Shown here piece after piece: positions 31,650-37,400 of a stretch of 64,000 nt of DNA. Each line of letters opens with the position of its first letter. Position 1 is the stretch's first letter. The stretch covers positions 124,001-188,000 of the forward strand of contig JAJEIE010000040.1 of NCBI GenBank assembly GCA_022827625.1, read 5' to 3'. The position numbers and the translations under genes were made by a program. This DNA is from Candidatus Poribacteria bacterium (GTDB lineage: Bacteria; Poribacteria; WGA-4E; WGA-3G). The notes beneath the pieces are model-generated. The model made no database searches, was not told where the DNA came from, and worked only from the letters and a program-made list of their open reading frames with translations.

Positions 31650-33278
31650 CTACGGCTCAATGGACAAAGGTGTTAGGCTGTTCTCACGCGGGACATACAG
31701 ATACGCACTTCTACCCGTAAAATACTGCGAATACACATTTTCCCAATCGCTATTTGTCAGTTTCCAACGCGGTGCGGGACCGAGTTTAAAATAGACAATA
31801 TCTGCTTCTTCAAGACGCCGGAATGGATAATCCCCAATCGGGGCACCGCGATGTTGAGAGACAAATATAACAGCGTTGTGAATGTTCTGCTTCGCTACCA
31901 TAGGCGGTAGCTTCTGATAGACAGGACTCCAATTCTGGTATACCTTCCCGATGCGGACGTAACTCCATACAATATTAACGCTGAGTAACAAAAAGCAGAT
32001 GCCAACACCAACCACAAGTCCGCGCCTCTCAGGTAATTTAAACCCCTTATAGAGGATAATCATCCCCCGTGCTACCAACGGAATAAAACCGAGGAACGTC
32101 GATTCAGTATAATAGCGCGCGTTGACCGGTGTGAATCCCCACGTTGAACCCTCAAAATAGAAAAATGCATAAAGCAGCAGATTGCCAATGAGCAGCGCGA
32201 GGCATAGCACATCATACCTATTGCGCGAGGTATGGAAGAAAGGTATCAGCACGAGACACCACGGCAGAATTAACGGCACAAAGGCAACAAACCACCCCAA
32301 GGACAATTCAACTTCTTTCAGCAGCTCGTGATGATAACTCCCCCAACCGAGCGCATTGAAGCTGATACACGGGAGAATGTGTCGCCACGTCCGTTCTATT
32401 GCCCATGCCGGTGTAAAAATAAATGCTCTCTCAAGATCGGGGACATAGCCTTCTGTTCTCGGACCGAATCCGATTTTGTCATAAGGTTGTGCAACCGTGT
32501 GTGTGAACATGAACGGATCTTCAGTGAAATGCGCGTTCCACGACATACACACACCCAGCATCACGACAAAAGGGAGAAAAAAGAAACCAAAGCGTTTTAT
32601 TGTATCCAAAAATGTTGGTCGATCCTGCCATTGGGTGAAGAGATGATAGACCGTTAATCCGCCACCAACGACGCCAAACACTACTGCAGAGAGCGGGCGC
32701 GTATTAAACGCATACCCCAACGCAAATCCTGAAAGCAGTGGATAGCCGATACGAGCAAGACGGGAAGCATCGTTTTTGCAGTTCAAAGTTTTGAGGAGCG
32801 CGAATAGGTAAACGGAAAGGTAGAAACGACTCACAGGTTCGCTGAACCACGTTGACCCCATACCGAGTGTTGCTGGTGAAATAAGCGCGAGCACCGCGGC
32901 GATAAGCGCAAGTCCGCTATGGATGTCTCCATATATCTCTTTTACAAACAGATAGAGGAATAGCAGCGCCCCCCCGGTTGCAAGCGCAGGAATCAGCCAA
33001 GGTGCGTTGATAAATACGCCGAACATCAGCATCAAGGCATTTCCGAATGGATATTTTGAATACCATTTGCCGTTGAGGATATTAATATGGGGCGAGGAAG
33101 AGAAACCGTGTTCCGGCGGTGCCGGGAACGAGAGTTTGCCTTCCGTGAACAACTTCGCTTGGAACAGATACGAGACGGTATCCGGCTCGAAGTATGAGAA
33201 CTGGAAGTAGATACCGCACAGAATCACTGATAGCAGCACACCGAGTATAGAGATAATAAAAATAGGTTTGGCTTTCAT
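31650..33278 (-). CDS. GT-C family membrane glycosyltransferase-like protein
   Basis: 542 aa with about ten to twelve predicted transmembrane helices. After the first helix come FEPDTVSYLFQAKLFTEGK, with an acidic D in the first periplasmic loop, and GKWYSKYPFGNALML, as in GT-C enzymes of the PMT/ArnT type (GT39/GT83) that transfer sugars from polyprenyl phosphate. The C-terminal soluble part (ADIVYFKLGPAPRWKLTNSDWENVYSQYF) is not diagnostic. The acceptor is unknown: envelope glycan or protein are both possible. The gene is divergent from the his operon and 42 bp from its promoter. Fold assignment is good, specificity is not. Confidence 0.7.
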   Translation of the reverse strand: MKAKPIFIISILGVLLSVILCGIYFQFSYFEPDTVSYLFQAKLFTEGKLSFPAPPEHGFSSSPHINILNGKWYSKYPFGNALMLMFGVFINAPWLIPALATGGALLFLYLFVKEIYGDIHSGLALIAAVLALISPATLGMGSTWFSEPVSRFYLSVYLFALLKTLNCKNDASRLARIGYPLLSGFALGYAFNTRPLSAVVFGVVGGGLTVYHLFTQWQDRPTFLDTIKRFGFFFLPFVVMLGVCMSWNAHFTEDPFMFTHTVAQPYDKIGFGPRTEGYVPDLERAFIFTPAWAIERTWRHILPCISFNALGWGSYHHELLKEVELSLGWFVAFVPLILPWCLVLIPFFHTSRNRYDVLCLALLIGNLLLYAFFYFEGSTWGFTPVNARYYTESTFLGFIPLVARGMIILYKGFKLPERRGLVVGVGICFLLLSVNIVWSYVRIGKVYQNWSPVYQKLPPMVAKQNIHNAVIFVSQHRGAPIGDYPFRRLEEADIVYFKLGPAPRWKLTNSDWENVYSQYFTGRSAYLYVPRENSLTPLSIEP

Positions 33279-33320: not shown

Positions 33321-33349
33321 TTGACATTCGTTTCTTGATTGGGTATAAT
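33321..33349 (+). promoter_or_regulatory. consensus sigma70 promoter of the his operon
   Basis: TTGACA (33321-33326), exactly 17 nt, TATAAT (33344-33349): a perfect match to both hexamers. Transcription should begin near 33356, giving a 340-nt leader before hisZ. It faces away from the GT-C gene. Confidence 0.85.
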
Positions 33350-33384
33350 ATCATTAAGTCTAATTAAAATCACGACTTTTTAAG

Positions 33385-33399
33385 AGCAAGTCCATCTTG
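33385..33399 (+). other. small hairpin in the his leader RNA
   Basis: GCAAG (33385-33389) pairs with CTTGC (33395-33399) with a TCCAT loop. A similar element, CAAG/CTTG with TCTAA loop, lies at 33512-33524. Both are in the transcribed leader and may pace the polymerase or belong to a genome-wide short repeat. Confidence 0.45.
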
Positions 33400-33416
33400 C
33401 AAGCGACATTCAAAAA

Positions 33417-33467
33417 ATGTTTTATACGAATACTTTCAATATGCATCACCATCATTCGCACTTCTGA
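33417..33467 (+). CDS. hisL: histidine-rich leader peptide of the his operon attenuator
   Basis: Sixteen codons, MFYTNTFNMHHHHSHF then TGA (33465-33467). An internal ATG at 33441 in the same frame would give MHHHHSHF. Five of the last seven codons are His, including four in a row. This is the hallmark of a his attenuator, where scarcity of charged histidine-tRNA stalls the ribosome; the length equals that of the enterobacterial HisL. It is too short for ordinary gene finding. No clear Shine-Dalgarno precedes either ATG, which is the weakest point. The position, after a perfect promoter and before a terminator and hisZ-hisG-hisS, strongly supports the call. Confidence 0.85.
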   Translation: MFYTNTFNMHHHHSHF

Positions 33468-33469
33468 GT

Positions 33470-33551
33470 AGAGCGGATGAGGGAATATGTATAAACATCA
33501 TTGATACGAAGCAAGTCTAACTTGTTAGGACCCCAGTAAACGAGCCGCTCT
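33470..33551 (+). promoter_or_regulatory. candidate antiterminator pairing
   Basis: AGAGCGG (33470-33476), three nt after the leader stop codon, is complementary over 7 bp to CCGCTCT (33545-33551), which overlaps the GCTCT arm of the terminator. A ribosome stalled on the His codons would leave it free to pair and block the terminator; one reaching the stop codon would cover it. This is a model built from complementarity. Confidence 0.6.
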
Positions 33552-33613
33552 CCTTAGTGCTGTGCTATTAGTGCACGTGAGATACAGAGCACCCTGTTTA
33601 CTGGTTTTTTTTT
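33533..33613 (+). terminator. attenuator terminator of the his leader
   Basis: CCAGTAAAC (33533-33541) pairs perfectly with GTTTACTGG (33596-33604). An inner stem GCTCT (33547-33551)/AGAGC (33586-33590) extends it. Nine consecutive T (33605-33613) follow immediately. It stands about 80 nt before hisZ and after the leader peptide, as expected for a regulated terminator. Confidence 0.85.
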
Positions 33614-33666
33614 GACTTTTTCACTTTGAACTTAAAATTGGAGTTATTTAGGAACAACACACGGAG

Positions 33667-33687
33667 CATGTACCACTCGGGTACATG
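33667..33687 (+). promoter_or_regulatory. hairpin between GGAG and the hisZ start codon
   Basis: CATGTACC (33667-33674) and GGTACATG (33680-33687) form a perfect 8-bp stem with a 5-nt loop. GGAG (33663-33666) abuts it upstream and ATG 33696 lies 8 nt downstream. If folded, the hairpin would bring GGAG to an effective spacing of about 8 nt, which would explain the absence of a normal Shine-Dalgarno. Confidence 0.5.
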
Positions 33688-33695
33688 AACAAGAA

Positions 33696-35138
33696 ATGGA
33701 AAAATTTGATAAACCTGCTGGAACAAGCGATTTTTTACCTGAACAAATGGTTCAGCGGAATTTCGTCGAAAAGATTGTTCGCGAGACTTTTGAAAATTAC
33801 GGATACGCACAAGTTCAGACACCGCTATTTGAATCTTTTGCCCTTTTATCTGCCCAATCTGGTGAGGAAATCCGGCACAAGATGTTCACCTTTGTCGGTT
33901 CAGATCGAGTGGATTACGCCTTGAGGCCTGAGATGACCGCACCCGTTTGCCGCCTCATCGCTAACGGACAACTTGGGCACCTTTCTTATCCGTACAAACT
34001 CTACTATATCGGGCAATGTGTCCGACAAGAACCCGTTACAGATGGTGCCGAAGTAAAAAGAGAATTTCGACAGGCTGGTGTTGAACTCATTGGACCGGCT
34101 TCTGCCTACGCCGATGCAGAAATTATTGCGATCCCCGTCCGTATCCTCGAAAAACTCAACATTTCACACACGAAGTTAAAAATCGGCAATACTGGAATTT
34201 TCCGAGAGATTTTCAAACAGGTCTCATTGGATACACAGGATCACGCTGAAATTATATGGGACCTCGACTATCTCGCACGTTTGCGTACCGAAGCACGATT
34301 TTGGGATCTGGAAACACTCCGCGACGCGCTGAATATGTTGCGGCGAGCACAGGGAACTGACTACGAAGGAAAATATAAGATTGAAGCCTTCACGGTTCAA
34401 AAATTAACTGACAGTAATGCTCTCGCGATTGCTGAGCAATTGCCGGAGATTGCTGAGGAAACCTATAAAGCGCGGTGGCAACGCTATTTCAATATCTCTG
34501 AAGAAACCGCTCGATGTTGCATAGAGATCTCGAAAATTTCCGGCGACAAAGATACTGTCATGAAGGTATGGGAAACACGCTTCGGTAATACGGCACAAGC
34601 CGCACGTCAGGAGCTACTTGCCCTTTGTGAGTGCTTGGAGAGCTATGATATTACAGATTTTGAAATCAATTTGGGCATCACGCGTGGGTTCGATTTCTAT
34701 ACCGGCACAGTCTTTCAGATTGAATTGCCTGAGACACACCGACCGCTCTGTGGCGGTGGGAGATACGACAAACTAATTGAGTCTTTCGGTGGCGCACCAA
34801 CACCAGGGGCTGGCTTCGCATTCCAATTTGATGCACTTGTGGAAGCGTTTATTGGCACAGAAAAGACGACTGTCAACGGAAGAAATGACTATTTCATCGC
34901 AGCAGAAACACCAGAACGGATTGTGGAGGCACAGCGACTCGCTGAAACATTACGGAAAAAGGGTAAGAACGTGGAGGTCGATTTGATGGAACGCGACTTA
35001 CAAGCGCAGCAGGATTACGCCAGCCAAGCAAACTATGATTACCTAATCCGTTTGGTTTCTGATGAACCCATCCGCCGAATTCAAATCAAAACGGGTGATA
35101 CACAAGTCGTCACTGTTAGTGACCTCATAAACGTATAG
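33696..35138 (+). CDS. hisZ: ATP phosphoribosyltransferase regulatory subunit, long form
   Basis: 480 aa, class II aminoacyl-tRNA-synthetase fold. DKPAGTSDFLPEQM begins it, followed by YALRPEMTAPVCRLIA, REFRQAGVELIG (the HisZ version of motif 2, differing from RYRQFFQ of the true HisRS downstream), GITRGFDFYTG and GGGRYDKLIESFG. HisZ binds short-form HisG and provides its regulation by histidine. The next gene is a short hisG, confirming the role. It is longer than typical HisZ (about 330-400 aa) because it keeps a C-terminal region (about 395-480: NDYFIAAETPERIVEAQRLAETLR) resembling the HisRS anticodon-binding domain. A second true histidyl-tRNA synthetase was considered and rejected. Confidence 0.85.
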   Translation: MEKFDKPAGTSDFLPEQMVQRNFVEKIVRETFENYGYAQVQTPLFESFALLSAQSGEEIRHKMFTFVGSDRVDYALRPEMTAPVCRLIANGQLGHLSYPYKLYYIGQCVRQEPVTDGAEVKREFRQAGVELIGPASAYADAEIIAIPVRILEKLNISHTKLKIGNTGIFREIFKQVSLDTQDHAEIIWDLDYLARLRTEARFWDLETLRDALNMLRRAQGTDYEGKYKIEAFTVQKLTDSNALAIAEQLPEIAEETYKARWQRYFNISEETARCCIEISKISGDKDTVMKVWETRFGNTAQAARQELLALCECLESYDITDFEINLGITRGFDFYTGTVFQIELPETHRPLCGGGRYDKLIESFGGAPTPGAGFAFQFDALVEAFIGTEKTTVNGRNDYFIAAETPERIVEAQRLAETLRKKGKNVEVDLMERDLQAQQDYASQANYDYLIRLVSDEPIRRIQIKTGDTQVVTVSDLINV

Positions 35139-35169: not shown

Positions 35170-35949
35170 ATGCAAACGGAAGCACAACGGACGCTGAATC
35201 TGCTTTTACCAAAGGGAAGTCTGCAGCCAGAGACCCTTGAGATGTTTCAGCGTGCCGGTTACGAACTTAACGGTTATACCGCAACTGACCGATCCTATCG
35301 GGCAACCTTCCAAAACGATAGCAATTTTCAAATCAAAATTTCACGTCCGCAGGAGATACCCGTCTACGTCGGTATGGATGATTTTTACGACGTAGGGATT
35401 ACTGGGCAAGATTGGGTCGAGGAAACCGATGCTGATGTCGAAGAAATCTTGCCTTTAGCGTATGGACACATTGATATTATCCTCGCTGTTCGTGAGGAAC
35501 AAGAGGGCATCAACACATTTGAGGATTTGATAAATCTCGCTGATAGGGACATCCGTATCTCCACCGAATACCTGAACATTGCTGAGAAATATATCCTCGA
35601 AAAGACGGAAAATAAGATCGCACCGGCGATTTTAACACCGTGGAAACGGCTGAATACGACAGGTTCTTATCAGTCCCCGATCACGCTTATGTTGTCTTTC
35701 GGCGCGACTGAGGGGAAACCGCCGGAGGAAGCCGACGCTATTATTGACAATTCGACGGCGTCTCGGCGGACAATCAAGGCAAATGCCCTCAAGCAGATTG
35801 AACTCTTACGTGAATCCGAATCCACCCTCATTGCGAACCCGAAGGCACTCACGGACGCTTGGAAACGTGAAAAGATTGAAGAACTTAAGCAGACCTTACA
35901 AAAAGGGCTGCGGAGACGTCGGAGTCAAGCACTCCCTGGACACATTTAA
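35170..35949 (+). CDS. hisG: ATP phosphoribosyltransferase, short form (first step of histidine biosynthesis)
   Basis: 259 aa, preceded by AAGGAGAAGATAG. LLLPKGSLQPETLEMFQRAGYEL at the N-terminus, the central DVGITGQDWVEE segment and DAIIDNSTASRRTIKANALKQIE near 195-215 match HisG catalytic domains. The last 35 residues are basic. It lacks the C-terminal ACT-like histidine-sensing domain of the long form, so it needs HisZ, encoded 31 bp upstream. It catalyses ATP plus PRPP to phosphoribosyl-ATP in the cytoplasm. Feedback is through HisZ; expression is probably controlled by the upstream leader. Confidence 0.93.
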   Translation: MQTEAQRTLNLLLPKGSLQPETLEMFQRAGYELNGYTATDRSYRATFQNDSNFQIKISRPQEIPVYVGMDDFYDVGITGQDWVEETDADVEEILPLAYGHIDIILAVREEQEGINTFEDLINLADRDIRISTEYLNIAEKYILEKTENKIAPAILTPWKRLNTTGSYQSPITLMLSFGATEGKPPEEADAIIDNSTASRRTIKANALKQIELLRESESTLIANPKALTDAWKREKIEELKQTLQKGLRRRRSQALPGHI

Positions 35950-36068: not shown

Positions 36069-37400
36069 ATGGCAGCCCCATTCATTAAACCGCGCGTTCC
36101 GCGAGGGATGCGGGATATTTTACCTGAACAGATGATCCGCAGGCAATACGTTATAGATGTGATCCGTGGCGTGTTCGAGGAGTTTGGGTTTGAGCCTTTA
36201 CAAACACCCGCTTTGGAACTATCTGAAGTACTCACAGGGAAATACGGACCAGACGCTGAGAAACTTATCTATCAGGCGGGACATGTCGGTGGTAAAGAAG
36301 ACATCTCCCTCCGTTACGATCTTTCGGTACCGCTCTGTCGCGTTGTTGCTATGCACCCACAACTGCCGAAACCCTTTAAGCGTTACCAGATTGACCCCGT
36401 CTGGCGAGCAGAACGCCCACAAAAGGGACGCTACCGCCAATTCTTCCAGTGCGATGCGGATACCGTTGGAACCGAGAGCATGCTCGCCGATGCTGAGAAC
36501 GTCAATCTCATCTATCAGGTGTTGACTCGACTCGGCTTCAAGCAGTTTGAGATTAATATCAACGACCGAAAACTTATCACCGGGATTGGGCAATTTGCCG
36601 GTGTATCTACGGAACAACTTAGCGGACTTTATCGCTCCATTGATAAATTAGATAAGATTGGACTATCGGGAGTCAGAGCGGAATTAGCAGAAAACCAGAT
36701 TCCGGAACCCGTTATTGAGAAACTCCTCTCGCTCCTTCAAATTGAAGGCGATGCAGAAACAGTCCTGAATGCCCTCTCTGAACGACTCGGTGATTCTGAA
36801 GTCGCAAACGAAGGGATTTCGGAATTGGAAGAACTCAGCGGTTACCTCACGATACTCGGTGTTCCAGAGGAATTTTATAGGATAAACGTCTCAATGGTCC
36901 GTGGGTTAGAATACTACACGGGTCCGATCTATGAAACAGTCGTTGAGGAACCGAAAATTGGAAGTATCACTGGTGGTGGAAGGTACGATGAACTCATCGG
37001 AAGTTTCAGCAAACAGAGTTATCCGGCAACAGGCACCAGTTTCGGAATTGAGCGGATTATTGACGTGATGGAAGAATTTGATATGTTCCCATCGGCTGTA
37101 GGTAAGACAGTTACACAAGTGTTAGTGACTGTTTTTGATGCAGATCTCGCCCAAGCGTCTCTGAAGTTAGCGACGCTCCTGCGCAGCAGCGGCATCCGGA
37201 CAGAGGTCTACTGTCGTCCAACACGCATCAGCACACAGATGAAATACGCCGATAACAAAGGTATACCGTATGCCGTTATCCTCGGATCTGATGAGGTAGA
37301 AACTGGCACGGTCGCAGTTCGAGACCTCGCGAGTAGAGAGCAGCAAGTTATCCCACGAGAGAAACTTGTCGAACACATCCAAGGATTCGTAGGCGTGTAA
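36069..37400 (+). CDS. hisS: histidyl-tRNA synthetase
   Basis: 443 aa from ATG 36069, preceded by AAGAGGAGAAAATTT; an upstream in-frame start at 35997 is disfavoured. KPRVPRGMRDILPEQM, ISLRYDLSVPLCRV, WRAERPQKGRYRQFFQCDADTVG (motif 2), SMVRGLEYYTGPIYE (histidine A motif) and TGGGRYDELIGSF are HisRS signatures; FGIERI near 350 is motif 3. The C-terminal anticodon-binding domain starts near 357. It charges tRNA-His, so placing it under the same His leader as hisZG ties tRNA charging to amino acid supply. The 119-bp gap after hisG contains a GACTTCGCCA/TGGTGAAGTC hairpin (35966-36014) without a T tract. Confidence 0.93.
   Translation: MAAPFIKPRVPRGMRDILPEQMIRRQYVIDVIRGVFEEFGFEPLQTPALELSEVLTGKYGPDAEKLIYQAGHVGGKEDISLRYDLSVPLCRVVAMHPQLPKPFKRYQIDPVWRAERPQKGRYRQFFQCDADTVGTESMLADAENVNLIYQVLTRLGFKQFEININDRKLITGIGQFAGVSTEQLSGLYRSIDKLDKIGLSGVRAELAENQIPEPVIEKLLSLLQIEGDAETVLNALSERLGDSEVANEGISELEELSGYLTILGVPEEFYRINVSMVRGLEYYTGPIYETVVEEPKIGSITGGGRYDELIGSFSKQSYPATGTSFGIERIIDVMEEFDMFPSAVGKTVTQVLVTVFDADLAQASLKLATLLRSSGIRTEVYCRPTRISTQMKYADNKGIPYAVILGSDEVETGTVAVRDLASREQQVIPREKLVEHIQGFVGV

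What the first reader, a model, noticed from the sequence alone, without database searches (positions are those of the whole stretch)
33321..33613. Histidine attenuator controlling hisZ-hisG-hisS
A perfect sigma70 promoter (TTGACA-17-TATAAT) leads into a 16-codon leader peptide with four consecutive His plus one more (MFYTNTFNMHHHHSHF), then a terminator (CCAGTAAAC/GTTTACTGG and nine T). AGAGCGG (33470-33476) just after the stop codon pairs over 7 bp with CCGCTCT (33545-33551), an arm of the terminator: a classical antiterminator design. Unlike the enterobacterial system, it would control a regulatory-subunit HisZG enzyme together with histidyl-tRNA synthetase. A His leader in a Poribacteria-like lineage is, to my knowledge, not well described.
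Basis: partly seen in the sequence, partly recalled or inferred. Interest (0 to 1): 0.88.

Follow-up and report, generated by a model that had tools for sequence, protein, structure and literature searches.

The report
Conserved histidine attenuator before Poribacterial hisZ-hisG-hisS
An RNA switch at the start of a histidine gene cluster in sponge-associated Poribacteria appears to read a short run of histidine codons and let transcription through only when charged histidine tRNA is scarce; it is a well-supported new example of a classical control mechanism in a phylum where I found none reported.

Summary
The promoter (33321-33349), the 16-codon leader MFYTNTFNMHHHHSHF (33417-33467), AGAGCGG/CCGCTCT and the terminator with nine T are all there. 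The element is deeply conserved. A covariance model finds it in 56 of 59 genomes of the family; the three without it also lack a full hisZ match. It finds none in 26 genomes of other families of the phylum. All 49 leaders aligned carry a run of three or four His codons, and the stop codon is 2-6 nt before the antiterminator core in 48 of 49. In folding models the antiterminator is shut without a ribosome (median probability 0.001), opens when a ribosome sits on the last His of the run (0.99), and is blocked by a ribosome at the stop codon. The genes downstream are hisZ-hisG-hisS, in that order in 46 of 48 loci; hisS is the only histidyl-tRNA synthetase gene found. This is a ribosome-mediated histidine attenuator: a known kind, absent from Rfam and, as far as I could find, unreported in this phylum. 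His leaders before hisZ and a hisS paralogue were already predicted in Bacillus. No experiment exists.

The parts
33321..33349 (+). Sigma70-type promoter TTGACA-17-TATAAT
   Evidence: 12/12 match; 11 or 12 of 12 in the 45 of 49 leaders where it was found; three of the other four are contig ends
33417..33467 (+). Leader ORF MFYTNTFNMHHHHSHF, stop UGA 33465-33467; His codons 33444-33455 and 33459-33461
   Evidence: ATG exactly 9 codons before the His run, with the frame open, in 30/30 leaders of the 4-His group; run of 3 or 4 His in 49 leaders
33441..33492 (+). Protector hairpin: regulatory codons (33441-33462) pair with the antiterminator 5' strand and the bases after it (33470-33492)
   Evidence: 95.3% of cells paired in the 4-His group, 93.6% in the 3-His group with double-sided changes
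33470..33476 (+). Antiterminator 5' strand AGAGCGG, just after the stop codon
   Evidence: Core helix 99.6% paired in 36 non-redundant sequences; spacing to the stop conserved
33511..33525 (+). Small stand-alone hairpin GCAAG-UCUAA-CUUGU
   Evidence: 99.4% paired in relatives, one pair with a double-sided change
33533..33541 (+). Terminator 5' arm CCAGTAAAC
   Evidence: outer helix 98.1% paired, two pairs with double-sided changes
33545..33551 (+). Antiterminator 3' strand CCGCTCT; in the terminator fold GCTCT (33547-33551) pairs with AGAGC 33586-33590
   Evidence: always 3 nt after the terminator 5' arm in 49/49
33596..33613 (+). Terminator 3' arm GTTTACTGG and T9 tract
33696..35138 (+). hisZ, ATP phosphoribosyltransferase regulatory subunit
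   Evidence: Best solved-structure match 3od1, ATP-PRT regulatory subunit; TIGR00442 and TIGR00443 both below cut-off; identity rests partly on the adjacent HisG, which matches PF01634 only
35170..35949 (+). hisG, 259 aa
   Evidence: TIGR00070 over cut-off; PF01634 only, no C-terminal regulatory domain match
36069..37400 (+). hisS, histidyl-tRNA synthetase, likely start ATG 36069 after AGAGGAG
   Evidence: TIGR00442 399.5 bits, over cut-off; start and ribosome-binding site; only HisRS-like gene besides hisZ found in the genome

Best explanation
This is a ribosome-mediated transcription attenuator that senses histidyl-tRNA and controls hisZ-hisG-hisS. The promoter makes a leader RNA that encodes a His-run peptide. 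With enough charged tRNA-His, the ribosome reaches the stop codon and covers AGAGCGG, so the terminator forms and transcription stops at about 33613. With no translation, the His codons fold back on AGAGCGG (protector hairpin) and termination also wins. When charged tRNA-His is scarce, the ribosome stalls on the His run, opens the protector and leaves AGAGCGG free. It then pairs with CCGCTCT before the terminator 3' arm is made, and RNA polymerase reads through. Shown by sequence and comparison: the parts, their conservation, spacing and pairing. Inferred: ribosome occupancy, the kinetic race and the response in the cell.
For: A strong covariance-model match in 56/59 family genomes, co-occurring with hisZ, and none in 26 other genomes of the phylum. 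Leader reading frame, ATG position and His run conserved. Antiterminator core 99.6% paired, terminator 98.1% paired with compensatory pairs. Protector hairpin with compensatory changes in His and Ser/Pro codons. Folding of the transcript up to CCGCTC: antiterminator median probability 0.001 without a ribosome, 0.99 with a ribosome on the last His of the run (48/49 above 0.5), 0 with a ribosome at the stop. The result holds for an assumed ribosome reach of 9-18 nt; shuffling the leader raises the no-ribosome value to 0.57, so the closed state depends on the leader sequence. Promoter and gene order conserved.
Against: No transcript, termination or starvation data. The antiterminator core is too invariant to show compensatory change, so its pairing rests on complementarity, spacing and one-sided changes. 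At full-length equilibrium the terminator wins in most sequences even with a stalled ribosome, so the mechanism needs a kinetic race. The leader ATG has no evident Shine-Dalgarno sequence. One sequence (L066) has a mismatch in the antiterminator and fails the model; L014 has lost the stop codon at the usual place.
Confidence: 0.93

Rival explanations
1. A fixed transcription terminator that only lowers expression of hisZGS; the His-rich ORF and the complementarity play no regulatory part.
For: The terminator is strong and dominates full-length equilibrium folding.
Against: It leaves unexplained the conserved His run, reading frame, stop-to-antiterminator spacing, antiterminator complementarity and the protector covariation.
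Confidence: 0.03
2. The element senses something other than stalled ribosomes: a T-box-like tRNA sensor, a riboswitch or a protein-bound leader.
For: The antiterminator core and the GCAAG hairpin are almost invariant in sequence, as a binding site would be.
Against: No Rfam family, T-box included, gives a meaningful match even at E up to 10. The geometry fits ribosome positions and the closed state depends on the leader codons.
Confidence: 0.03
3. The attenuator acts mainly on hisZ-hisG; hisS is expressed largely from a promoter of its own. (This can be true alongside the best explanation.)
For: HisRS is essential, and in the window the hisG-hisS gap is about 120 nt.
Against: The hisG-hisS gap is below 25 nt in 34 of 46 loci. 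The simple promoter scan finds no + strand site between 33614 and hisS.
Confidence: 0.2

Closest known systems
Enterobacterial his operon leader (Rfam RF00514 His_leader)
   Same: His-run leader peptide, antiterminator, intrinsic terminator, control of histidine genes
   Different: No covariance match at E up to 10. The target here is hisZ-hisG-hisS, not the whole his operon. The antiterminator strand lies inside the terminator hairpin.
His leader peptides before hisZ and the hisS paralogue in bacilli (PMC2965389) and his attenuators in the B. cereus group, Peptostreptococcaceae and Erysipelotrichales (PMC9413887)
   Same: Short peptide with a run of His codons ahead of hisZ or his genes, with terminator and antiterminator
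   Different: Different phylum; here one leader precedes hisZ, hisG and the only hisS. I did not align the sequences with each other.
Classical attenuators of aminoacyl-tRNA synthetase genes (pheST in gamma-proteobacteria; trpS and leuS in Streptomyces, PMC1262725)
   Same: A synthetase gene under leader-peptide attenuation by its own amino acid
   Different: Different amino acid and leader; here the synthetase gene follows two biosynthetic genes in one apparent operon
Histidine T-boxes of Firmicutes (hisS, his operons)
   Same: Sense tRNA-His charging and control hisS or his genes
   Different: T-boxes bind the tRNA directly; no T-box match here

Membership tests
Ribosome-mediated amino-acid transcription attenuators | Short translated leader with tandem codons for the amino acid of the controlled pathway | tested here: met
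   HHHH or HHH run, frame and ATG conserved; translation itself not shown
Ribosome-mediated amino-acid transcription attenuators | Intrinsic terminator between leader and first structural gene | tested here: met
Ribosome-mediated amino-acid transcription attenuators | Alternative antiterminator pairing that competes with the terminator | tested here: met
   Core 99.6% paired; its 3' strand is paired differently in the terminator fold. It does not use the outer terminator arm.
Ribosome-mediated amino-acid transcription attenuators | Ribosome position (stalled at regulatory codons or at stop) selects the fold | tested here: met
   In silico only
Ribosome-mediated amino-acid transcription attenuators | Readthrough rises when the charged tRNA is scarce | not testable with these tools
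   Needs an experiment
Rfam RF00514 His_leader | Match to the covariance model | tested here: not met
   No match at E up to 10
T-box riboswitch (histidine) | Match to the T-box covariance model | tested here: not met
   No match at E up to 10

The most novel reading that the evidence does not exclude
The antiterminator leaves the outer terminator stem unpaired and lies only 3 nt inside it. Antiterminator and terminator could then even coexist as a pseudoknot, so antitermination would work by topology and timing rather than by taking over a terminator arm. Together with a protector built from the regulatory codons themselves, and with the only HisRS gene in the same operon, this would be a distinct attenuator architecture with feedback through HisRS supply.
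Probability: 0.3. Interest if true: 0.55.

Novelty: new member of a known kind. Interest (0 to 1): 0.45.

Why it matters
It extends histidine leader-peptide attenuation, with a well-resolved comparative alignment, to an uncultured phylum of sponge symbionts. It gives a new RNA family absent from Rfam. It also suggests that coupled transcription and translation is used for regulation in Poribacteria, and that supply of histidine and of HisRS is set by one sensor. It appears to go with the hisZ-type enzyme: related families with a longer HisG and no full hisZ match lack it.

Tried and rejected
Rfam scan at E up to 10 for His_leader, T-box and others: no meaningful match. Searched other families of the phylum with the covariance model: none. 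Searched for His-run leaders near hisG and hisS in other families and near hisD within the family: none followed by a T tract. Tested whether any leader sequence would keep the antiterminator shut: shuffled leaders do not. The second element copy in one draft genome lies at a contig end. A first version of the folding script stopped on a pattern error and was rerun.

Full report
Check of the observation. The sequence at 33321-33613 is as described. The promoter is a 12-of-12 match. The leader ORF is 33417-33467 and encodes MFYTNTFNMHHHHSHF. AGAGCGG is 33470-33476, CCGCTCT 33545-33551, the terminator arms 33533-33541 and 33596-33604, and nine T follow (33605-33613). The run of four His codons is the only one in the window. 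The upstream neighbour (31650-33278) is on the other strand, so the terminator belongs to the leader transcript.

Genes. Downstream lie a HisRS-like gene (33696), hisG (35170) and hisS (about 36069). The first gene scores below the curated cut-offs of both the hisS and the hisZ model. Its best solved-structure match is an ATP phosphoribosyltransferase regulatory subunit, 3od1. The neighbouring HisG is 259 aa and matches only PF01634, the short type that by general knowledge needs HisZ. I therefore call the first gene hisZ. In the genome the only other match to it is hisS, so one HisRS gene is found.

Conservation. Nearly all carry a short ORF with HHHHSVHF or HHHS[IV]H and the like; the exceptions checked are contig ends or an insertion that moves the leader further upstream. 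After removing duplicates, 49 leaders were aligned. Two groups appear: 4 His codons (genus of the window) and 3 His codons (other genera of the family). In the first group the ATG is exactly nine codons before the His run and the frame is open in 30 of 30, whereas one of the other frames is closed in 29 of 30. The promoter reaches 11 or 12 of 12 in 45 of 49; three of the other four are contig ends. The gene order hisZ-hisG-hisS holds in 46 of 48 loci, with hisG-hisS gaps mostly under 25 nt.

Distribution. A covariance model finds the element in 56 of 59 genomes of the window's family and in none of 26 genomes of other families of the phylum. It is single-copy, except that one draft genome has a second copy at a contig end. 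The three family genomes without it also gave no full hisZ match; in one of them (G023) hisG lies 170 bases from a contig end, so a cut is likely. Other families mostly have HisG frames of 292-343 aa, no full-length hisZ match and no His-run leader by hisG or hisS. Within the family, hisD lies elsewhere and has no such leader. The attenuator therefore goes with the hisZ-hisG-hisS operon.

Structure. On 36 non-redundant sequences the antiterminator core pairs in 99.6% of cells, the outer terminator helix in 98.1% with two pairs changed on both sides, and the GCAAG hairpin in 99.4%. The antiterminator core itself hardly varies, so covariation cannot prove it; all but one of its differences keep the pairing. 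In the 3-His group it shows compensatory changes: a CAT to CAC change in L063 is matched by A to G opposite, and a Ser to Pro codon change in L075 and L078 is likewise matched. In the 4-His group 95.3% of cells pair, and one pair has three types although it is unpaired in 12 of 28 sequences.

Mechanism test. Transcripts ending just after CCGCTC were folded with a ribosome footprint forbidden to pair. Median antiterminator probability is 0.001 with no ribosome, 0.99 with a ribosome on the last His of the run (48 of 49 above 0.5), and 0 at the stop codon. The outcome is unchanged for footprints reaching 9 to 18 nt downstream. Shuffling the leader raises the no-ribosome value to a median of 0.57, so the closed state depends on the leader sequence. 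The result at the stop codon follows directly from the spacing: the antiterminator core begins 2-6 nt from the start of the stop codon in 48 of 49. In full-length equilibrium folds the terminator wins in most sequences even with a stalled ribosome, so the switch must act before the terminator 3' arm is made; this timing is inferred, not shown.

Known relatives. Leader-peptide attenuation of his genes is classical in enterobacteria. His leaders before hisZ and a hisS paralogue were predicted in bacilli in 2010 (PMC2965389), and his attenuators in three Firmicutes lineages in 2022 (PMC9413887). Attenuation of synthetase genes is known for pheST, trpS and leuS (PMC1262725). Paper searches gave nothing for Poribacteria, within an open-access library only. 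No Rfam family matches. I therefore class it as a new member of a known kind, with an architecture that differs in detail: the antiterminator strand lies inside the terminator, and a protector is built from the regulatory codons.

Limits. No experiment has been done. Absence of a Shine-Dalgarno sequence before the leader ATG leaves translation initiation unexplained. Whether hisS depends wholly on this leader is not shown. That the window is from Candidatus Poribacteria is inferred from the titles of its closest relatives.

Noticed in passing
window 33663-33698: A hairpin (CAUGUACC-ACUC-GGGUACAUG region) lies between GGAG and the hisZ ATG, which are about 28 nt apart. It recurs with changed but still pairing stems in about 12 relatives and could bring the ribosome-binding site near the start codon.
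   Followed up: partly
window 33384-33403: A second GCAAG...CTTGC hairpin stands before the leader ORF, similar to the one at 33511-33525; seen in many relatives of the 4-His group.
   Followed up: no
window 33696-35138: The hisZ product (480 aa) scores higher with the hisS model than with the hisZ model and below both cut-offs; the hisS model match extends to residue 466, into what may be a relic of the synthetase C-terminal domain.
   Followed up: partly
window 33614-33695, and the same gap in relatives: The distance from terminator to hisZ varies from about 25 to over 500 nt among relatives, with inserted repeat-like segments.
   Followed up: no
loci L127-L152: Within the same order, some families have a HisRS 46-48% identical to this one and others a much more distant one (about 30%), so the synthetase type changed within the group.
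   Followed up: no
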